Positions 9,498 to 54,090 of a stretch of 64,000 nt of DNA are shown one piece after another. The notes below the pieces were generated by a model, which was not told the DNA's origin, made no database searches, and was given only the letters and a program-made list of their open reading frames with translations. Position 1 is the first letter of the stretch. Each line of letters opens with the position of its first letter. The position numbers and the translations under genes are program-made. Source of the stretch: Skermania sp. ID1734 (GTDB taxonomy: Bacteria > Actinomycetota > Actinomycetes > Mycobacteriales > Mycobacteriaceae); assembly GCF_007489285.1 (NCBI RefSeq), contig NZ_VLIY01000010.1, positions 62,001 through 126,000 on the forward strand. The letters are read 5' to 3'.

Positions 9498-11591
9498 TCA
9501 GTCCGCTGCGCGGGCCGGTTCGATGACGTAGGTGCCCTGGGCGTCCACTGTCAGGGTGTAGCCCTCGATGAGGACGACGGTCGTGGTCGGCTGCTCGATG
9601 ACCGCGGGGCCGAAGACGCGGTTGTCCCGTCGAAGCTCGAGACCGTCGTAGACATCCACCTGAATCTCCGAGCCGGAGAAGATGGCTTCGCGGGTGCCCT
9701 TGTGGGCCGCGGACGGATCCTGGCCGGCCGACGGGTCTTCGGCGAGGGCGGGCTTGGTGGTCCGACCGAACGCGGTCAAGCGCACGTTGATCAACTCGGT
9801 GGCCTCCCCCGGCATCGAGTAGCCGTTGAGCGACTCGTGCTTTTCCTCGAAATCGGCAACGAGCTGCTTGAGCGCCGCAGGCGTGAGTTCGCCGTCGAAC
9901 TCCAGCGGCACTTCGATCTCATCGAATTGGCCCACGTAGCGCACATCGGCGGTGAAGATCAGATCGATCGCGTCCGGGTCTACATTTTCCGAGCGCAACG
10001 TGACAATTGCTTCGTCCCGCATCTCCCGATACACCGCGCTGACCCGGCTCAGATCCAGCGAATCCATGTCGGAGACAAAGGTTCTCGCATACATGTGCTT
10101 GAGGTCGGTCAGCAGCGTTCCGACAGCGCAGAACACCGACGACTCGCGGGGGACGATGATGCGGCTGATGCCGAGTTCCTGGGCGATCGGCACGGCGTGG
10201 ATCGGTCCGGCGCCACCGGCTACCACCAGCGTGAATTCGCGGGGGTCGACACCGCGCTTGACCGAGACTGCATTGACGGCCTCGGCCATGGTGGCGTTGA
10301 CCACCCGGTAAATGCCTTCGACCGCTTCGGTGACCGACAGGCCCAACGGTTCGGCAACCTTCTCCTCGACTGCCTTGCGGGCGGCGTCGACGTCGAGGGT
10401 GAATGCGCCATCGCCGAACAGGTCTGGGTTCAGGTAGCCCATGAGTAGTTCGGCGTCGGTGGTGGTGGGGTTCTGCCCACCCCGGCCGTAGCAGGCGGGA
10501 CCGGGTGTGGCGGTGGCGCTTTGGGGTCCGACGCGCAGGATGCCGCCGGAGTCCACCCACACCAGAGAACCCCCGCCCGCACCCACGGTGTGGATGTCGA
10601 GCATCGGCAGGGCCACCCGATAGCCGCCGATCTCGCTGTCGCTGGTGAGCAGTGGTTTGCCATCGCGGACGAGTGCCACATCGAAGCTGGTGCCGCCCAT
10701 GTCCACGGTGATGACATCCTCCGAACCGTGGCGGCGGGCGTACTGCAGGGCTGCTTCCGGTGCGGCAGCCGGTCCGGACATCAGCGCGTTGACGGCCATC
10801 TCGCTGGCGATTTCGGGCGACATCACCCCGCCGTTGGACTGCACGATGAGCAAGGTGCCGCCGAAGCCGCGGTCGGCCAACTGCCGTTTGATGTTGGCCA
10901 GGTACTTCTGCAACTTCGGGCCGACAAACGCATTCAGCACCGTTGTGCTGTGCCGCTCGTAGGCGCGAATCTGCGGCAGCACGTCGCTCGAAATCGTGAC
11001 GAAGGCGTCCGGGAGCTCTTCGCGCAGAATTTCCGCGGTCCGTTGCTCGTGAGCAGGATCTAGGAAGGACCACAGGTAGGAGATCGCCACGGCGTCGACG
11101 CCTTGGTCCCGGAACAGCTGGGCAGCCGCTCGGACGTCATCCTCATTCAGCGTGACGAGCTCATTGCCCAACACGTCGATACGTTCGCGCACGGTGGCCA
11201 CGAGGTCGCGGGGCACGAGGGGAACGGGCGGGGCGTACTTCGAGTCGTTCTGGCGGTCCCGGATCCCGCGGCGCATGTTCAGCAGATCCCGGAATCCGCG
11301 CGTCGTGACGAAGCCGGTCTTCGCGCCTTGGCGGGTGAGGACGGCGTTGGTCGCGATCGTCGTGCCGTGCACGATCGCGGACACGCCGCTGAGGAACTCT
11401 TCCAGCGATTCGCCGACAGCGTCCGCCGCCTTGGTCAATCCGTTCAGCAAACCGACCGACGGGTCGTGTGGCGTGGTGGGCGACTTGTAGATCCGCCCCT
11501 GCCCGTCCCCCTCGACCACGAAGAGATCGGTAAAGGTGCCCCCGATATCTATCCCGACCCGTCGACCGGTCGTGTTGCTTGTATTAACCAT
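9498..11591 (-). CDS. HyuA-like ATPase subunit (hydantoinase A/oxoprolinase/ketone carboxylase family)
   Basis: The protein has 697 residues, the normal HyuA length. The N-terminus carries the ASKHA phosphate loop RVGIDIGGTFTDLFVV. Further motifs are SGVSAIVHGTTIATNAVL, the VDMGGTSFDVALV loop near residue 290, and GGAGPIHAVPIAQELG. It should activate a carbonyl by phosphorylation for hydrolysis or carboxylation by the HyuAB complex. It is the first gene of the six-gene minus-strand unit and starts at an ATG after CGGAGAG. About 210 nt of promoter-sized space separate it from the IclR gene upstream. Confidence 0.9.
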   Translation of the reverse strand: MVNTSNTTGRRVGIDIGGTFTDLFVVEGDGQGRIYKSPTTPHDPSVGLLNGLTKAADAVGESLEEFLSGVSAIVHGTTIATNAVLTRQGAKTGFVTTRGFRDLLNMRRGIRDRQNDSKYAPPVPLVPRDLVATVRERIDVLGNELVTLNEDDVRAAAQLFRDQGVDAVAISYLWSFLDPAHEQRTAEILREELPDAFVTISSDVLPQIRAYERHSTTVLNAFVGPKLQKYLANIKRQLADRGFGGTLLIVQSNGGVMSPEIASEMAVNALMSGPAAAPEAALQYARRHGSEDVITVDMGGTSFDVALVRDGKPLLTSDSEIGGYRVALPMLDIHTVGAGGGSLVWVDSGGILRVGPQSATATPGPACYGRGGQNPTTTDAELLMGYLNPDLFGDGAFTLDVDAARKAVEEKVAEPLGLSVTEAVEGIYRVVNATMAEAVNAVSVKRGVDPREFTLVVAGGAGPIHAVPIAQELGISRIIVPRESSVFCAVGTLLTDLKHMYARTFVSDMDSLDLSRVSAVYREMRDEAIVTLRSENVDPDAIDLIFTADVRYVGQFDEIEVPLEFDGELTPAALKQLVADFEEKHESLNGYSMPGEATELINVRLTAFGRTTKPALAEDPSAGQDPSAAHKGTREAIFSGSEIQVDVYDGLELRRDNRVFGPAVIEQPTTTVVLIEGYTLTVDAQGTYVIEPARAAD

Positions 11592-11760
11592 CGAGACTCT
11601 CCGTAAATGATCGGCGTGGACATTTTTCAGGCATGACGAATAACCGTGGGCGCAATAAGCGACGAATTTGAGGGAAAATCAATCGAGCGGTGAGTGGAAT
11701 TTTCGGTTGAAATCTCTCTGCGAAAAAATGTAACCGGCCTCACAAGACGGCCGCAACGGT

Positions 11761-11786
11761 CCCGTTCGGCTGAGCCGAACAACGGG
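11761..11786 (-). terminator. hairpin just downstream of the first IclR gene
   Basis: GTTCGGC (11764-11770) and GCCGAAC (11774-11780) form a perfect stem with a 3-nt loop, flanked by partly pairing CCC and GGG. It lies 15 nt past the IclR stop on the minus strand and so probably separates the regulator transcript from the hyuA operon. There is no U-tract. Confidence 0.45.
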
Positions 11787-11800
11787 TGCGCTCGGGACGC

Positions 11801-12559
11801 CTAGCGCTGGTCGAGACCGAAATCCTTCGGGCGAGACAGGCGTTGGGCGGCGTCGACAATCGCCTGGGCGTAGGTATCGCCGTGCGTGAGCTGGCGATAT
11901 TCGAGAAAGCTCATGCTCAAGGCCCACGTCACATCGCCGTCGGCATTGCGGACCGGCGCAGCGACACAGCACATGCCCTCGACCGTCTCCTCCACGTCGA
12001 GGCCATAGCCACGCTCGCGGACGATGGCCAGTTCCGACTCCAACACGGGCAGCGATCCGATGGAATGCTCGGTCAGCCGGGCCATTTCTTTGCCGGCATA
12101 TATGTTGCGCACTTCGCCGGGCGGTAGATGGCTCAACAGAACCTTGCCGGCCGCGGTGCAGTGCGCCGGCAGTCGCTCGCCCACCCGAGTCAGGTTGACG
12201 TGCACGCCGGTGCGAGGAGAAATCTTCTCCAGATAGACCACCTCGTTGCGGTAACGCGAAACCAGTTGAACGGTCTCGTTGTACGTCTCGACGAGCTTGG
12301 CCATTTCCACGCGGGCAGGGCCGGAGATCTCCGATGTCATGCGGGCCCGCAGTCCCCACTGAAACGCCCGCCACCCCAGCCGGTACCGGCCTCGTGTGGT
12401 ACGCCGCAGCAGCCCTAGCCCCGTCATAGCCTGCATGTATTCCCACACTGTGGTTTTCGGCAGCTGCAACGCGCGGCAGACCTCAGTGACGCTCCACTCG
12501 GGAACATCGGAGCAAAAAAGATCCAGGACCTGCGTGGCCCGTTCCAGTCCGTCGATCAC
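11801..12559 (-). CDS. IclR family transcriptional regulator
   Basis: The 252-residue protein has an N-terminal winged helix (WSVTEVCRALQLPKTTVWEYMQAM) and a C-terminal IclR effector domain containing LPAHCTAAGKVLLSHLPPGEV and VEGMCCVAAPVRNADGDV. IclR proteins bind small aromatic or aliphatic acids. It lies directly upstream of the hyuA-containing unit and is probably its regulator. The GTG start at 12559 follows GGGAGGG. The second IclR gene is 63 nt upstream on the same strand. The helix-turn-helix is somewhat divergent from the usual DIA-x-x-x-GLxKST form. Confidence 0.9.
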   Translation of the reverse strand: MIDGLERATQVLDLFCSDVPEWSVTEVCRALQLPKTTVWEYMQAMTGLGLLRRTTRGRYRLGWRAFQWGLRARMTSEISGPARVEMAKLVETYNETVQLVSRYRNEVVYLEKISPRTGVHVNLTRVGERLPAHCTAAGKVLLSHLPPGEVRNIYAGKEMARLTEHSIGSLPVLESELAIVRERGYGLDVEETVEGMCCVAAPVRNADGDVTWALSMSFLEYRQLTHGDTYAQAIVDAAQRLSRPKDFGLDQR

Positions 12560-12622
12560 TGCGCAGCCCTCCCGAGCATGCGGTGGACGATACTCGCCGG
12601 GACGCTGCGGGGTCCTTACCTT

Positions 12623-13384
12623 TCAGCGGAGCCGTTCGCGGCGGACCAACGTGCTGCTCAGGCCGGTCGCCGCGGCTCGCACAGTGGCGGCATTGGCCTC
12701 CGGCCGGAATCGGTTCGTGGGACCGGTCACGCTTATCGCCGCAAGCAGTTGCGCTTCGGGCCCGAAGACCGGGGCGGCCACGCAGGCGATGCCCAGCGCG
12801 GACTCTTCGCGTTCATAGGCCACGCCGGTCTTGACGACCTGGGAAAGTTGGCGCCGCAGCATCCCCGGCGCCACCACCGTGTGCGGGGTGCGGCGGACCA
12901 GCGGCCCCGACAGCACCTCCCGGCGCAGTTGCGGGTCGGCATTCGCGAGCAATGCCTTGCCAATGCCGGTGCAGTACAGCGGCATTCGACCTCCCGCCCG
13001 CGACGGCGACTTCGCCTGCCGGTGGCCGCCGAGCTTGGCCACATACACCACGTCGTGGCCTTCCAGCACGCCCAGATGCACCGTCTCGTGGGTGCGTTCG
13101 TAGATGTCTTGCAGGAACGGCATGGCCAGCTCGAGCAGTCCGCGTTCGAGCGATGCCATCATGCCCAGCTCGAACAGCCCGCCGCTGAGGCGGTAACCGC
13201 TCCCAGTGCGGTCGAGCAGCCGATTGGCGACGAGCTCGCCAGCGAGCCGGTGCACTGTCGCTTTGTGTAGCCCGGTTCGCCGAACCAGCTCCGCGAGTCC
13301 GAGCACCTGATCGTCGGGGCGAAACGCGCGCAGGATGGTCACCGCCTTACCCAGCACGGTGTCGAGGTCGGCCGCGTCGCTCAC
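12623..13384 (-). CDS. IclR family transcriptional regulator (second copy, unlike the first)
   Basis: This 253-residue IclR protein has the standard helix-turn-helix LGLAELVRRTGLHKATVHRLAGELV and an effector domain with MPLYCTGIGKALLA and ESALGIACVAAPVFG. It differs clearly in sequence from the neighbouring IclR protein. It is divergent from the hydratase gene across 60 nt, so it is the likely controller of the hydratase-dehydrogenase-aldolase arm. The GTG at 13384 was used as start. Confidence 0.9.
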   Translation of the reverse strand: MSDAADLDTVLGKAVTILRAFRPDDQVLGLAELVRRTGLHKATVHRLAGELVANRLLDRTGSGYRLSGGLFELGMMASLERGLLELAMPFLQDIYERTHETVHLGVLEGHDVVYVAKLGGHRQAKSPSRAGGRMPLYCTGIGKALLANADPQLRREVLSGPLVRRTPHTVVAPGMLRRQLSQVVKTGVAYEREESALGIACVAAPVFGPEAQLLAAISVTGPTNRFRPEANAATVRAAATGLSSTLVRRERLR

Positions 13385-13444
13385 CCGGCGATCGTATCGC
13401 TGAGTGAGACACTGCCCTGTTCTTCGGCTGCGCCTACCCGCACA
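13385..13444. promoter_or_regulatory. divergent promoter region with short dyad
   Basis: The 60-nt spacer between the IclR gene and the hydratase gene must contain both promoters. GCGAT-CGT-ATCGC at 13388-13400 is a perfect 5-nt dyad close to the IclR start and could be an operator. The dyad is short, and it may be chance in high-GC DNA. Confidence 0.35.
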
Positions 13445-14278
13445 GTGAATGCCATGACCGAATCCACCACCTTCGCAGTGGCCTCCGAAACCGACATCGT
13501 GGCGGCCGCAGACCGACTCGCCAACGCCGCGGCAACCGGCGTCCCGTGTGCACCGGTACGGGACCTGATCGGCTCAGAGAATCTCGCCGCCGCATATGCC
13601 GTGCAGCGTCACCTCGTCACGCGACGCGAAAATTCCGGCGCGTCCGTGGTTGGGCGCAAGGTTGGGCTCACGTCGGTGGCGGTACAACGCCAACTCGGCG
13701 TCGACCAGCCAGATCTCGGAGTGCTTTTCGACGATATGGCCTACGCCGACGGCGACACGGTGCCGATCGGGACGCTGCTGCAGCCCAAGGTCGAGGCGGA
13801 AGTCGCGTTCGTGCTCGGCGCCGATCTCGTCGACGGGCCATTGGATGCAGCCCAAGTGCGGGACGCGATCGACTCCGTCGTTGCCGCGCTGGAAATTTGC
13901 GACAGCCGCATCGCGTCATGGGATATCCGCTTCGCCGACACCGTGGCCGACAACGCGTCGTCGGGCGCGTATGTCCTTGGCTCGCAGCATTTTACGTTGG
14001 ACGACGTCGAGCCCGTCGACGTTGTCATGTCGATGAGTATCGACGGGCAAGAGGTGTCCACCGGCACGGGGGCAGCATGTCTGGGTGATCCGATCGCGGC
14101 GGTGGTGTGGCTTGCCCGGACTGCCCGCGACTTCGGGCAGCCGCTACGAGCGGGTCAGGTGGTGCTGTCCGGGGCGTTGGGCCCCATGGCATCTGCCGCG
14201 GCCGGTAACCACGTCACGGCCACCCTGTCCGGGCTCGGCACGGTGAGTGTCCGCTTCGCTGAAGGAGTTCAGAAATGA
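13445..14278 (+). CDS. 2-hydroxypenta-2,4-dienoate (2-keto-4-pentenoate) hydratase
   Basis: The 277-residue protein belongs to the MhpD/HpaH/4-oxalocrotonate decarboxylase family. The metal-binding glutamates are visible in [13 protein letters not shown] (Glu117 and Glu119), with the upstream [23 protein letters not shown] and the later [11 protein letters not shown] block. It should hydrate 2-hydroxypenta-2,4-dienoate to 4-hydroxy-2-oxovalerate. It is the first gene of a three-gene unit with 4-nt overlaps. The start could be the GTG at 13445 or the ATG at 13454; neither has a convincing ribosome-binding site, so the transcript may be leaderless or nearly so. A decarboxylase function is less likely given its neighbours. 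Confidence 0.87.
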
Positions 14279-49377: not shown

Positions 49378-49585
49378 GTTCGCTCACCTCCAGTGCGGAG
49401 CTCATATTAAACGCGCCCGTCGGCGAGCGAAGCCATGCTTATGGATGCGCCCACTCGAAAAACGTCTCCCCAGCCATGATCTCGACGCAAGCCACATCCG
49501 CGGCTGACACGCATGTCCGGTGCGGTTACCGGGTACAACGCCACCAATCGCAGACATCGATTTGTTGACGAGGGAGGCAACGTTT

Positions 49586-50110
49586 ATGTACAGCAAGATC
49601 ACCGTCGCGCGGCACCCGGTTCACCCCGCGCTGGTGGCCTTCCCGGTCGCGTTCTACACCGGAAGTCTGGTGGGCTTCGCCGTGTACGTGGCCAACAACC
49701 ACCAGTTCTGGCTGAACCTCGCGATCGCGGCGAGCATCGCCGGCGCGGGTACCGCGATCCTGGCGGCGGTGCCCGGGTTCGTCGACTGGCTGTTGGGCGT
49801 GCCGCGCCACTCCCAAGCCAAGATCGTCGGCGCGGCCCATGGCGGACTCAACCTGGTGGCGCTCGGGCTCTTCATCGCCGTCGCCGTGCGCTATGTCGGC
49901 CACTGGAATGGTCCGGCCACCGATGCCACGCTCGGCTTGGCGCTCTCAGCTCTGGGGGTCGCTCTCACCATCGCGGCTGGAGCCATGGGCTGGACGCTGG
50001 TGCAGACCTTCCACATCGGGGTGAGCCTCACCGATGCGCAGTGTCGCGACGAGGACATCGTCCATTTGCATGTTCCTGGGCTGATGCTCGCTTCCCCTCG
50101 CCGCAACTGA
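49586..50110 (+). CDS. DUF2231 membrane protein
   Basis: The 174-residue protein starts at an ATG (49586) after GAGGGAGG. It has four hydrophobic helices and the DUF2231 opening HPVHPALVAFPVAFYTGSLV, with the later GFVDWLLGVP and HGGLNLVALGLF. The conserved His residues of HPVHP could bind haem or metal, as proposed for the family. It is convergent with qcrB, 8 nt apart. Confidence 0.87.
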   Translation: MYSKITVARHPVHPALVAFPVAFYTGSLVGFAVYVANNHQFWLNLAIAASIAGAGTAILAAVPGFVDWLLGVPRHSQAKIVGAAHGGLNLVALGLFIAVAVRYVGHWNGPATDATLGLALSALGVALTIAAGAMGWTLVQTFHIGVSLTDAQCRDEDIVHLHVPGLMLASPRRN

Positions 50111-50118
50111 CGCGAGGT

Positions 50119-51768
50119 TTAGTGCGGGCCTGCGCCGTTGCCGTCGCCGCGGGCCCGCTCTTGTTCTGCCTTCAGGACGGCGAGTTGGGTAGCTTCGCTC
50201 TCGTGCTCGGCGCGGCTGAACGCGTCGCTCTGCGCCACCGGGTCCGCCCGCAGCAGGCTGCCAGTGCCAGGGCGGCCCGCCGAGCCGAGCTTGTTCATCT
50301 TTTTCGGCATCGGCGCGCCCTGGTACTGCAACGGGATCGGGTGGCCGTGCGAATCGACCGGGCCGAGCGGCTGATGCACCTCGATGTACTCGCCATTGGC
50401 CAGCCTGCGGACCACTCCCGTCTCGATGCCGTGCTCGAGCACCTGACGGTCCGAACGCTGCAGGCCCAGGCAGAAGCGGTAGGCAACGTAGTAGGCCACG
50501 GGCGGCAGAATCAGCACACCCATCCGACCCATCCAGGTCGTCGCGTTCAGCGAGATGTGGAAGACCAAGGCGATGATGTCGTTGCAACCGGACAGGGTCA
50601 GCACAACATAGAAAGCAACAGCCATTGCTCCAATACCGGTGCGTACCGGCGCATCTCGCGGCCGCTGCAGCAGATTGTGGTGCGCGTCATCCTTCGTGAG
50701 CCGCTTCTCGATCCACGGGTAGGCCGTCATCACAGCCAGGACAACGAGCATGGTCAGCGCCACCCAGACCACCGCGGGCACCATGTACCGACCGAAATAC
50801 AGTTCCCACGGCGGGAAGATACGGGCCAGACCTTCCGTCCACAGCATGTAGAAGTCCGGCTGTGAACCGGCCGACACCTGCGACGGGTTGTACGGCCCGT
50901 AATTCCAGATCGCATTGATCTGTAGCAGCCCGCCCATCAGTGCCAGCACCGCAACGACCATGGCCATGAACGCGCCGCCGTGGGCCGCGAACACCGGCAT
51001 GATCCGGATACCGACCACATTCTTTTCGGTGCGGCCGGGCCCGGGGAACTGCGTGTGCTTCTGGTACCACACCACCGCCAGGTGAATGGCGATGAGGCCC
51101 AGGATGATTCCGGGGAACAGCAGCACGTGGATGATATAGAGGCGCGGGATGATGATGGTGCCCGGGAAGTCGCCGCCGAACAGCGCCCATTGGATCCAGG
51201 TGCCCACCACCGGAAGACTCATCGTGATGCCGCCCATGGCCACCCGCAGACCGGTTCCGGACAGCAGATCGTCGGGCAGCGAATAGCCGAAGTAGCCCTC
51301 GAACATGGCCAGGATCAGCAGCAGCGAGCCGATCACCCAGTTCAACTCGCGGGGGCGGCGGAATGCTCCGGTGAAGAAAATGCGGAGCATGTGGATGATG
51401 ATCGCGCACGCGAACAGCAGCGCTGCCCAGTGGTGGATCTGGCGGACGAACAGTCCGCCGCGGACCTCGAACGAGATCTGCAGCGCGCTCTCGTACGCAC
51501 GGGACATGTGCAGGCCGCGCAACGGTTGGTAGGGGCCGTTGTAGACGACCTCGGTCATCGACGGGTCGAAATAGAGAGTCAGATAAATCCCCGACAACAA
51601 CAGCACGATGAAGCTGTAGAGCGCGATCTCCCCGAGCATGAACGACCAGTGCGTCGGGAAGACCTTGTTCATTTGACGTTTGACGCCGGCGGCGAGTTTA
51701 TAGCGCGAGTCGACAGCGTCAGCCTGTTCGGCGCTCAGTTGGGCCAACCGACTCTTTATCGCCACCAT
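50119..51768 (-). CDS. qcrB: cytochrome b subunit of the cytochrome bcc complex (orphan QcrB)
   Basis: From the ATG at 51768 the protein has 549 residues, the same length as mycobacterial QcrB. Haem-ligand histidines are in [17 protein letters not shown] and [16 protein letters not shown]. The quinol site has [14 protein letters not shown] in place of PEWY, as in actinobacteria. [13 protein letters not shown]-like [17 protein letters not shown] and [20 protein letters not shown] are highly typical. QcrC, QcrA and CtaE genes, which normally precede qcrB, are absent; the neighbours are a DUF2231 gene and a 64-residue ORF. It is therefore an extra or relocated copy. Confidence 0.93.
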
Positions 51769-51847: not shown

Positions 51848-52042
51848 TCAGGTCTCGGCGTGCTGCGCGCGAACTATGCAATTCTCGAGTTGGGTCAGCC
51901 CCATCGCGATTCGCTTGCCGCCGCCATACACAGGCTCTGCCTCAACATAGGCAATCGGCCCATAACGGATTGTCTTGATCTCGTAGTCGATGGTTTTTCC
52001 GTTGATCTGCAACGGAAATCGGTCACCGCGGGTTATCGCCAT
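51848..52042 (-). CDS. small hypothetical protein
   Basis: The 64-residue protein starts at an ATG (52042) with GGGGGAGG at a 6-nt spacing, which is better than the GTG at 52108 that would add 22 residues. The sequence is a beta-rich small domain ([36 protein letters not shown]). No family is recognised. It is upstream of qcrB on the same strand by 79 nt, so the two could be co-transcribed. Confidence 0.6.
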
Positions 52043-52175: not shown

Positions 52176-52649
52176 TCACAACCACAATCCACGCAGGGCG
52201 ACGAAGCGCATCAGCCCGACAAGGCCACCGACACCGATGACGAAGCCCGCCTGCAGCACGTCGCCAGCACCGGGAAACAGGAAGCTCAACAACGCCAGGG
52301 CGGCCGCGTTCACCGCGAGGCCGAGGAGCATCAATCCCCCGCCCTCCCATTGCGCTTCGAACCAGCCGACTCTCGAGTCCGCACGGAAGGTCAACCTGCG
52401 GTGCATCTCATTGGCCAGCGCCGTGCTCACCGCGGTGCCAGCGATGTTCGCCCACTGGGATCCCTCGCTGTGCATGCCGAGAAAGAGCAGAAAGTAGGCG
52501 ATATTGGAGATTCCGCCGACCGCCGCGAACCTCATCAACTGGACGATGACACCGTTGCTGCGCAGGAAACCGGCCAGGCCCGCCTCCGCGGCAGCACCCA
52601 CCGACGACGGCAGAACCGTCAGTCGGCGATTGAGCTGCATGACCGTCAT
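52176..52649 (-). CDS. GtrA family membrane protein
   Basis: The 157-residue protein starts at an ATG (52649) after CTGGAGG. It has four transmembrane helices and the GtrA signature MRFAAVGGISNIAYFLLFLG, then ANEMHRRLTFR. GtrA proteins are thought to flip or assist polyprenyl-linked sugars, in mycobacteria for arabinogalactan-type assembly. Immediately upstream, TGGAGG-N5-CCTCCA at 52692-52708 is a short dyad shared with the divergent gene. Confidence 0.87.
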   Translation of the reverse strand: MTVMQLNRRLTVLPSSVGAAAEAGLAGFLRSNGVIVQLMRFAAVGGISNIAYFLLFLGMHSEGSQWANIAGTAVSTALANEMHRRLTFRADSRVGWFEAQWEGGGLMLLGLAVNAAALALLSFLFPGAGDVLQAGFVIGVGGLVGLMRFVALRGLWL

Positions 52650-52845
52650 GAGGGCCTCCAGGAAGGGTGCTGATTCGAATATACCCCCAACTGGAGGAAA
52701 TGCCTCCACTTTGTTGGTGACTTGTTATACACCGCACAAGTGCCGGTTTCCTGCACGGGACACCACGGGTCAATTCACGGCAGGATTTGGCACCTGGTGT
52801 CCCGCGCGAACACGTGCAGAGTTGCAGGCAGATACGCTCCACCGC

Positions 52846-54090
52846 ATGGTGGACGCAACCGATCTGGCCGCACTCGACCGCGCGACACAACAGTTTTCGG
52901 AGGTCCTGGCATCGCTTGGCCCGGACGACCTTTCGCAGCCGTCGGCCTGCGACGGTTGGGACGTCCGGGACGTCGCCAACCACGTTTGTGGCGGAGCGTT
53001 GCGGTACGCCCACTACCTGCGCGGCGGAATGCCCGACGAGATCGCGTGGACCCGCACCGCCGACAACGCCGGAGACGACCCGCGTGCCGCTCACGACCAA
53101 CTCAGCCGTGAACTGCGCACGTTGTTCGCCCAGCCCAGCGCCGACACCATCCGCGCCCATCATCCGGTCCAGACGGTCAGCGGCACCGAACTGCTCTACA
53201 TGCGCGTCGAAGAGCTCGCCATCCATGCCTGGGATATCAGTGGCGCACTCGACGCATCCGCAACCATCGACGAGCCGTTGGCGGCCTACATCCTCGACCG
53301 CGGCACCGAAGTATTGCGCATCCAACGCGAGCACGGATACTTCGCCGGATCGAAAGCTATCGGCGACGACGCGCCGGCCGCCGCTCGATTGCTCGCCCTT
53401 ACCGGACGCGCGCCGCGCTACCAGGCCAGCAACATCCGAGCATCCAACTGCTCCAAGCCAACTAAAGTGATCGGCATGGACGAGCCCACGGTGCGCAACC
53501 GCAGCCCGTACCAAAGCACGGCGCTGAGCCTCATGCGCGTCGGGGTCCTGGACGCTCTGCACGATCTGCTGCTCGAACGGCGCTGGACGTCGATCACCAT
53601 GAACGACGTGGCCAAGGCTGCGGGGGTGAGCCGGGGAACGCTCTACAACGAATTTCAATCGAGGATCGGCCTGGCCCGCAGCTACGCACTGCGGCTGACC
53701 GACTCGGTCGTAGCCGGTATCGAGCGAGAAATCTACCGGCACCCCGGCGACGGGCACGGCGCACTGTGTGCGGCGTTCGGCGACTTCTTCAGCCAGATCG
53801 GGCACGATCCGCTGGTGCGCGCGCTACGCGCCGAAGACGCGCCGAACGACCTGCTCCGCATGATCACCGTCGAGAGCCAATTCATCGTCGACCATGCAAG
53901 CCGAAAGTTCTCGCGGACGTTTCAGGAAAGTTGGATCGGCGCCAGCAAACTCGACGCCGACATCATGGGCGAGGCCGTTGTGCGTACCGCGTTGAGCTTC
54001 CTCGCGCTCCCGCCGATCAGTCCCGAAGTCGCCGCGGAGGGCGTGGCACAGCTGCTCACGCCCTTCCTGACGGCAACGCGGTTGGACTGA
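52846..54090 (+). CDS. single open frame fusing a TIGR03086/MDMPI-type protein to a TetR regulator
   Basis: From the ATG at 52846 the frame is uninterrupted for 414 residues. Residues 1-190 are a DinB-like TIGR03086 protein (LASLGPDDLSQPSACDGWDVRDVANHVCGG, later VEELAIHAWDISGALD). Residues about 211-414 are a TetR protein. The junction (about 191-210, QASNIRASNCSKPTKVIG) has low complexity and looks like former intergenic DNA; TAA and TGA occur in the two other frames at 53464-53470. A single-base change could have removed the first stop. Whether one fused or two separate proteins are made is undecided. Confidence 0.7.
   Translation: MVDATDLAALDRATQQFSEVLASLGPDDLSQPSACDGWDVRDVANHVCGGALRYAHYLRGGMPDEIAWTRTADNAGDDPRAAHDQLSRELRTLFAQPSADTIRAHHPVQTVSGTELLYMRVEELAIHAWDISGALDASATIDEPLAAYILDRGTEVLRIQREHGYFAGSKAIGDDAPAAARLLALTGRAPRYQASNIRASNCSKPTKVIGMDEPTVRNRSPYQSTALSLMRVGVLDALHDLLLERRWTSITMNDVAKAAGVSRGTLYNEFQSRIGLARSYALRLTDSVVAGIEREIYRHPGDGHGALCAAFGDFFSQIGHDPLVRALRAEDAPNDLLRMITVESQFIVDHASRKFSRTFQESWIGASKLDADIMGEAVVRTALSFLALPPISPEVAAEGVAQLLTPFLTATRLD
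53476..54090 (+). CDS. TetR family regulator (AlkX-like), possible independent start
   Basis: An internal ATG at 53476 begins MDEPTVRNRSPYQ and gives a 204-residue protein of normal TetR length. The helix-turn-helix is WTSITMNDVAKAAGVSRGTLYNEF, similar to AlkX-type regulators. The C-terminal domain has GALCAAFGDFFSQIGHDPLVRAL. A weak AAAGTGA precedes the start. The same residues also form the end of the longer fused frame. Possible targets are the adjacent choD (2 nt beyond, convergent), gtrA or itself. Confidence 0.72.
   Translation: MDEPTVRNRSPYQSTALSLMRVGVLDALHDLLLERRWTSITMNDVAKAAGVSRGTLYNEFQSRIGLARSYALRLTDSVVAGIEREIYRHPGDGHGALCAAFGDFFSQIGHDPLVRALRAEDAPNDLLRMITVESQFIVDHASRKFSRTFQESWIGASKLDADIMGEAVVRTALSFLALPPISPEVAAEGVAQLLTPFLTATRLD

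What the first reader, a model, noticed from the sequence alone, without database searches (positions are those of the whole stretch)
50119..51768. Full-length QcrB outside a qcrCAB operon
The respiratory cytochrome b is normally encoded once with its partners. A stand-alone full-length copy next to a DUF2231 membrane gene could swap into the bcc-aa3 supercomplex, respond to different conditions, or change sensitivity to QcrB-directed inhibitors.
Basis: partly seen in the sequence, partly recalled or inferred. Interest (0 to 1): 0.57.

Follow-up and report, generated by a model that had tools for sequence, protein, structure and literature searches.

The report
Spare stand-alone respiratory cytochrome b gene
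This bacterium carries a second, intact copy of the gene for the central subunit of its main respiratory complex, away from the normal operon; such spare copies recur in its relatives and often differ at the very pocket where tuberculosis drug candidates bind, so they may give a drug- or toxin-tolerant version of the enzyme.

Summary
Confirmed: an intact 549-residue QcrB lies on the minus strand (50119-51768), with no qcrA/qcrC in the window. The same genome has a normal ctaE-qcrC-qcrA-qcrB operon on another contig; its QcrB is 89% identical. The solo is a duplicate of the resident gene (recent, or older and homogenised by gene conversion), under purifying selection (dN/dS 0.09). The DUF2231 neighbour is tail-to-tail and looks incidental. 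Stand-alone copies recur: 41 of 401 family genomes carry at least one full-length solo beside a canonical operon. Across 48 solo/canonical pairs, published quinol-site (Qp) inhibitor contacts differ more than matched positions; residue 317 (M. tuberculosis numbering, a Q203/JNJ-2901 resistance site) is changed in 30 of 48 solos but 1 of 41 canonical partners. Some plasmid solos sit beside phenazine or meroterpenoid genes. The window copy itself shows only modest pocket change (Y161, V178, Q195) and keeps A317 and T313. Best reading: an alternative QcrB that assembles with the resident QcrA/QcrC, most likely giving a Qp-variant complex that tolerates quinol-site inhibitors. Function is inferred. 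Closest known: QcrB2/QcrB3 of Streptomyces coelicolor.

The parts
50119..51768 (-). stand-alone qcrB, 549 aa, ATG start at 51768 (a TTG 63 bases upstream, 51831, would give 570 aa)
   Evidence: dN/dS 0.09 against the canonical copy
51292..51294 (-). codon for Y159 (M. tuberculosis position 161, menaquinone/TB47 contact); own canonical copy has Phe
   Evidence: contact list PMC8616580
51241..51243 (-). codon for V176 (Mtb position 178, beside Qp contacts 175 and 179); own canonical copy Ala, Val in 0 of 128 other canonical rows
51190..51192 (-). codon for Q193 (Mtb position 195, where H195Y is reported with TB47 resistance); own canonical copy His; Gln is native in 8 of 129 canonical rows
   Evidence: PMC8616580 and PMC8523172 passages
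51848..52042 (-). possible 64-aa small gene upstream, same strand; no Pfam match and no tblastn relative in the loci then held; may or may not be co-transcribed
49520..50110 (+). DUF2231 membrane protein gene, convergent neighbour, not considered part of the feature

Best explanation
The gene is a duplicate of the resident qcrB, kept as a working gene. Its product has no QcrA or QcrC of its own nearby and most likely replaces the canonical QcrB in the bcc complex, pairing with the canonical Rieske (QcrA) and cytochrome cc (QcrC). The resulting complex would have a differently lined quinol-oxidation (Qp) pocket. The most likely benefit is continued menaquinol oxidation when the canonical pocket is blocked by quinol-site inhibitors made by neighbours or, in some relatives, by the same cell. 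Shown: duplication, intactness, purifying selection, absence of partner genes beside it, recurrence in the family, excess of change at published Qp contacts across pairs. Inferred: expression, assembly, inhibitor tolerance.
For: Two QcrB genes, one in ctaE-qcrC-qcrA-qcrB. Window and canonical copies are sisters, SH-aLRT 100. dN 0.059, dS 0.65, ratio 0.09. Ten of the 12 histidine columns invariant in 129 canonical rows are His in all 72 solo rows, and all 12 in the window. 41 of 401 family genomes have full-length solos; all 48 of these solos accompany a canonical copy. Qp contacts (19) differ between solo and own canonical at 0.197 (genus-averaged) against 0.119 for columns matched on conservation, 0 of 2000 draws as high; without residue 317 P 0.0035. 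Against canonical-canonical pairs of equal divergence the contact excess has median 0.092, Wilcoxon 6e-5, 48 pairs; genus means positive in 7 of 8 genera. Residue 317: changed in 30 of 48 survey solos and 1 of 41 of their canonical partners; A317V raises the JNJ-2901 IC50 over 700-fold (PMC11964921, passages). G or A at 338 occurs in 13 of 72 solo rows, in each with L or M at 317. Gene-cluster context in plasmid relatives. S. coelicolor QcrB3 is made and co-purifies with Nar1 together with bcc-aa3 components.
Against: The window copy keeps A317, T313, E314 and M342 and its own pocket excess is weak: 3 of 19 contacts, P 0.043 (pair-matched), 0.24 (column-matched); its differences do not cluster significantly (P 0.11 and 0.22). 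Part of the pocket difference is derived in the canonical copy (I174, V184). Pair-averaged without residue 317 the column test is not significant (P 0.18). Over wider Qp segments genus means are positive in only 5 of 8 genera. Many g23 (Nocardia-like) solos and G087 show no contact excess. Event counts on a tree over 23 Qp, tail and resistance positions gave odds 1.2, P 0.07, while six QN-site positions gave odds 5.2, P 0.002, and QN was raised in one of two averages (0.101 v 0.054, P 0.0095; genus-averaged P 0.73), so change is not confined to Qp. Pairs are not independent: 24 of the 48 survey solos share one flanking gene set. No sigma-70-like promoter was found, there are no expression data, and I recognised no biosynthetic cluster beside it.
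Confidence: 0.42

Rival explanations
1. Condition-specific isoform: the solo QcrB tunes the supercomplex (redox, oxygen, dormancy, partner enzymes) and pocket changes follow from a different quinol or rate, not from inhibitors.
For: S. coelicolor QcrB3 is proposed to be spore-specific and affects nitrate reductase complexes (PMC7931247 passages). The genome also has two CydA homologues, a flexible respiratory chain. QN-site positions change too in some tests. C-terminal H476 is replaced in 12 of 72 solo rows and 0 of 129 canonical rows, hinting at changed partner contacts in some solos (not in the window).
Against: Repeated changes fall on a published inhibitor-resistance residue (317); gene-cluster contexts of some plasmid solos.
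Confidence: 0.3
2. Gene-dosage backup or redundant copy with no special property; differences are drift under slightly relaxed constraint.
For: Solo branch longer than canonical (0.21 v 0.048); weak window-specific pocket signal; many g23 solos unchanged at contacts.
Against: dS 0.65 with dN/dS 0.09: long retention with strong constraint; conserved histidines kept.
Confidence: 0.22
3. Assembly or contamination artefact: the second copy belongs to another organism or is a misassembly.
For: Draft genome of 56 contigs.
Against: Contamination 0.16, completeness 100 in the tool's table; the two copies are each other's closest relatives in the tree; the gene lies inside a 214.6 kb contig; the same arrangement is found in 40 other genomes.
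Confidence: 0.03

Closest known systems
Streptomyces coelicolor QcrB2 (SCO7120) and QcrB3 (SCO7236)
   Same: Extra QcrB paralogues; QcrB3 is encoded away from the qcr-cta locus, is synthesised and is proposed to substitute for QcrB in the supercomplex (PMC7931247, passages).
   Different: QcrB3 is 55% identical to QcrB and spore-linked; here 89% and in another order; no developmental role known.
Canonical actinobacterial QcrB of the bcc-aa3 supercomplex (M. tuberculosis Rv2196, PDB 7e1v)
   Same: Near-equal length, same domains, ungapped alignment over 538 residues, same conserved histidines as 129 canonical rows.
   Different: Encoded alone; V178 and Q195 in the Qp region.
Laboratory Qp-inhibitor-resistant QcrB variants (Q203, TB47, AX-35, JNJ-2901)
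   Same: Many solo copies of relatives are changed at the same residue 317; the window copy is changed at 195.
   Different: Natural second copies, not selected mutants of the only copy; sensitivity not measured.
Antibiotic-producer target-duplication self-resistance (concept recalled)
   Same: Some plasmid solos lie in or beside phenazine or meroterpenoid genes; a cytochrome b gene is listed in the furaquinocin cluster table of Streptomyces sp. Je 1-369 (PMC9686526, passages).
   Different: No such cluster was recognised beside the window copy.

Membership tests
QcrB (cytochrome b subunit of actinobacterial bcc) | Cytochrome b N-terminal domain over the curated cut-off | tested here: met
   PF13631 215.9 bits (cut-off 27), PF00033 84 bits (27.2)
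QcrB (cytochrome b subunit of actinobacterial bcc) | Conserved histidines, including haem ligands | tested here: met
   All 12 His columns invariant in 129 canonical rows are His in the window; which of them bind haem is recalled, not tested
QcrB (cytochrome b subunit of actinobacterial bcc) | Encoded with qcrC and qcrA | tested here: not met
   the other copy in the genome meets it
QcrB (cytochrome b subunit of actinobacterial bcc) | Assembles with QcrA and QcrC | not testable with these tools
   needs purification
Stand-alone QcrB paralogue (S. coelicolor QcrB2/QcrB3 kind) | Intact extra QcrB away from qcr-cta, canonical locus present | tested here: met
Stand-alone QcrB paralogue (S. coelicolor QcrB2/QcrB3 kind) | Expressed and found with the supercomplex | not testable with these tools
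   no expression data
Target-duplication self-resistance gene | Inside or beside a cluster for a compound that hits the target | tested here: inconclusive
   none recognised, but the window ORFs were judged mostly by eye with Pfam for a few; no systematic cluster search
Target-duplication self-resistance gene | Copy is insensitive to the compound | not testable with these tools
   pocket changes only suggestive

The most novel reading that the evidence does not exclude
Stand-alone QcrBs of the window's family and of other actinobacteria are a widespread, repeatedly evolved class of swap-in quinol-site variants: a resistant pocket carried on an otherwise canonical subunit, in some genomes kept different by selection while gene conversion homogenises the rest of the gene, and in some plasmids captured by phenazine/meroterpenoid clusters as self-resistance genes. 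The window gene would be a mild example.
Probability: 0.33. Interest if true: 0.75.

Novelty: new variant of a known kind. Interest (0 to 1): 0.5.

Why it matters
QcrB is the target of drug candidates tested in patients. If natural second copies lend Qp-inhibitor tolerance, they predict intrinsic insensitivity in Nocardia, Rhodococcus relatives and probably some mycobacteria, point to natural Qp inhibitors (a lone qcrB in a gene cluster would flag the product's target), and would show that one subunit of a multi-subunit respiratory complex can be exchanged alone.

Tried and rejected
DUF2231 partnership: rejected, convergent and without a relative in the flanks of other solos. Artefact or contamination: unlikely. 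Horizontal origin of the window copy: not supported, it is sister of the resident copy, though gene conversion could mimic that.

Synonymous 'islands' at the Qp region as a general sign of gene conversion: striking in G299, G061 and G369 but not general; the pooled test was negative against canonical-canonical pairs (P 0.84 and 0.9998). Clustering of window differences at the pocket: not significant. Pooled event count over Qp positions: P 0.07, and QN positions scored higher. Leucine at 313 and 317 in three Streptomyces plasmid solos looked like resistance changes, but such residues are common in canonical QcrB outside the family, so this was dropped as evidence. A shared neighbour of independent solos: none recognised; 38 of 72 solo rows (14 named Nocardia, 24 of genus g23) share one flanking gene set, hence one locus (Pfam of it); generic genes elsewhere. 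Promoters: none found. No structure was predicted; solved structures of close relatives exist.

Rows dropped: from the residue, event and pair tables I left out L001, L002 (repeats), L020, L026 (repeats), L048, L119-L121 (other order members) and L209 (divergent second operon of G413). Of the 49 multi-match genomes, 8 are not counted as solo carriers: G216 and G254 (apparently one gene in two pieces), G413 (second complete operon) and G167, G276, G384, G408, G416 (extra copies only in pieces). The 72-row solo set repeats five species (67 distinct rows, 36 of them changed at 317), so survey-only counts are given first. L127 (left of the window's contig neighbourhood) was fetched but not studied.

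Full report
What is there. The window encodes an intact 549-residue QcrB on the minus strand, 50119-51768. It aligns without gaps to M. tuberculosis QcrB, window residue i = Mtb residue i+2. Third-position G+C is 0.84 against 0.89 for the canonical copy. The gene downstream (DUF2231) converges on it with 8 bp between stops; upstream on the same strand is a possible 64-aa gene with no Pfam match, then GtrA. tblastn finds no QcrA, QcrC or CtaE in the window.

The canonical locus. The genome (5.12 Mb, 56 contigs, the only one held for its genus) shows one other QcrB, on contig 23, 89% identical, in the order ctaE-qcrC-qcrA-qcrB. A Pfam-profile search of the genome also finds these two only. It has two CydA homologues.

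Origin and selection. In a 119-row tree the two copies of this genome are sisters (SH-aLRT 100), the solo branch being longer, 0.21 against 0.048 (quick tree, no bootstrap). The solo label (26 rows there) needs 10 changes, at least 9 forced by starred branches. These are not all separate origins: gains and losses are not told apart, and 38 of 72 solo rows (14 named Nocardia, 24 of genus g23) share one flanking gene set, so the scatter of g23 solos in the tree may partly come from gene conversion with the canonical copy. For the same reason the window pair may be a recent duplication or an older one homogenised later; no relative in its genus is held to decide. Full-length solos occur in eight genus codes of the survey. 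Pairwise dS of the window pair is 0.65, dN 0.059, ratio 0.09 over 484 codons: time enough to decay, but it has not.

How common. In 401 genomes of the family (drawn evenly by the tool), 395 match at E 1e-100 and 49 show two or more matches. After fetching and classifying full-length copies, 41 of 401 carry at least one full-length solo, 7 of them two; all 48 solos accompany a canonical copy. Of 80 named loci from genome contigs (a capped list of best matches), 20 are solo: 19 Nocardia and Rhodococcus maanshanensis. Plasmids of Rhodococcus, Prescottella and Streptomyces also carry solos; the Tsukamurella plasmid copy lies in a whole operon. Genus g29, with solos changed at 317 in several species, is probably Mycobacterium: the canonical QcrB of G028 matches M. 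tuberculosis QcrB best among solved structures (1017 bits). That naming is inference.

The pocket. I took 19 QcrB positions named as menaquinone-head, Q203 or TB47 contacts in PMC8616580 (passages). Over 48 within-genome pairs these differ more than in canonical-canonical pairs of equal divergence (median excess 0.092, Wilcoxon 6e-5; drawn from 8256 control pairs) and more than columns matched on conservation (genus-averaged 0.197 v 0.119, 0 of 2000; pair-averaged 0.167 v 0.119, P 0.017; without residue 317, 0.0035 and 0.18). Pairs within a genus are not independent; genus means of the contact excess are positive in 7 of 8 genera (negative in g22), those of wider Qp segments in 5 of 8. The QN set (6 positions) was not raised by genus average (P 0.73) but was by pair average (P 0.0095) and by event count (12 v 4 events, P 0.002), so change is not confined to Qp. 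Residue 317 is the clearest single Qp position: Ala in 126 of 129 canonical rows, changed in 38 of 72 solo rows, or 30 of 48 survey solos v 1 of 41 of their canonical partners; 9 events on solo branches v 3 on others (nominal P 0.008 with 484 columns in play, seven columns ranking higher, position 476 highest). Codon 317 is among seven codons screened as resistance-associated in PMC6325196 (first of two parts of the letter), and A317V raises the JNJ-2901 IC50 over 700-fold (PMC11964921, passages); it does not affect AX-35 (PMC6178619, passages). Gly or Ala at 338 is found in 13 of 72 solo rows, in each with Leu or Met at 317; two canonical rows (one of them the partner of a solo) also have Leu317 with Ala338. 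This looks like a volume exchange (inference). T313 is changed (to Pro) in 2 of 72 solo rows.

The window copy. Relative to its canonical partner and 25 near canonical rows the solo is derived at F161Y, A178V and H195Q; the canonical partner is derived at T174I and T184V; they differ at 187 too. H195Y accompanies TB47 resistance in M. smegmatis (PMC8616580, PMC8523172; passages). Gln at 195 is also native in 8 of 129 canonical rows, so it is compatible with function and not diagnostic. The window-only test is weak (3 of 19 contacts: 161, 184, 187; P 0.043 or 0.24). I therefore rate inhibitor tolerance for this copy as likely only by analogy with the family trend.

Gene conversion in relatives. 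In G299 and G061 the two copies are 80-100% identical in DNA in 17 of 20 segments of 25 codons but 60-76% in the segments starting at 166, 316 and 341; in G369 the low segments start at 316, 341 and 366 (85, 68 and 83%). The solo islands of G299 and G061 resemble each other more (82, 91, 79%) than they do their own canonical copies. This suggests homogenisation except at the pocket. It is not general: pooled over 48 pairs synonymous divergence at the islands does not exceed the control, and the window pair shows no such island (pS 0.47 and 0.43 v 0.43).

Gene-cluster context elsewhere. R. erythropolis BG43 plasmid: solo about 5 kb from aqdC2 of the PQS-degradation genes. Rhodococcus plasmids, 3 of 6 near-identical hits read: solo beside a FAD monooxygenase and phz genes. 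Streptomyces plasmids, 3 of 33 records read: solo among mevalonate, FAD oxidoreductase and type III PKS or phz genes. A cytochrome b gene is also in the furaquinocin cluster table of PMC9686526 (passages). By eye, R. aetherivorans and P. equi plasmid solos were not in a recognisable cluster, nor were the chromosomal solos whose neighbours I scanned. Aurachins, made by some Rhodococcus and Streptomyces strains, block the bc1 complex (PMC10295502, passages). Leu at 313/317 in the Streptomyces copies is not evidence, since those residues are common in canonical QcrB outside the family.

Known or new. Lone QcrB paralogues are known in S. coelicolor (PMC7931247, passages). My searches (open-access library only) listed no paper that I recognised as describing stand-alone QcrB as an inhibitor-tolerant copy in Mycobacteriales or its repeated occurrence; that is no proof of absence. 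I file the gene as a new variant of a known kind.

Steps shown: existence, intactness, duplication, constraint, recurrence, pocket divergence as a trend. Steps inferred: expression, assembly with resident QcrA/QcrC, tolerance to Qp inhibitors, selection by natural inhibitors.

Noticed in passing
L177/L176 (G299), L179/L178 (G061), L203/L202 (G369): Solo and canonical qcrB nearly identical in DNA except at Qp-pocket segments (Mtb codons about 166-190 and 316-365 in G299/G061, 316-390 in G369), as if gene conversion spared the pocket.
   Followed up: partly
L124:9998-21370; L217; L218: Rhodococcus plasmids with a stand-alone qcrB beside a phenazine (phz) gene cluster.
   Followed up: partly
L214, L215, L216: Streptomyces linear plasmids with a stand-alone qcrB among mevalonate/meroterpenoid-like or phenazine genes, followed by a DUF3099 gene in all three.
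   Followed up: partly
L122:2793-13674: R. erythropolis BG43 plasmid: stand-alone qcrB about 5 kb from the aqd quinolone-signal degradation genes.
   Followed up: no
72 solo QcrB rows, Mtb position 476: C-terminal His476, invariant in 129 canonical rows, is replaced in 12 of 72 solo rows by six different residues, the most solo-biased column of the event count; the window copy keeps it.
   Followed up: no
window 52504-54090 (+): One open frame appears to hold both a TIGR03086/DinB-like part and a TetR-like regulator part (labels by eye; the one search tried failed on the frame).
   Followed up: no
L126 (contig 2, right of the window), 10915-13993: SelA and SelB homologues; nearby frames look by eye like SelD and formate dehydrogenase, suggesting a selenocysteine system.
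   Followed up: partly
L209 (G413:C123): G413 carries a second, divergent bcc-like operon (QcrB 47% identical, with QcrA, QcrC and CtaE relatives), unlike the other multi-copy genomes fetched.
   Followed up: no
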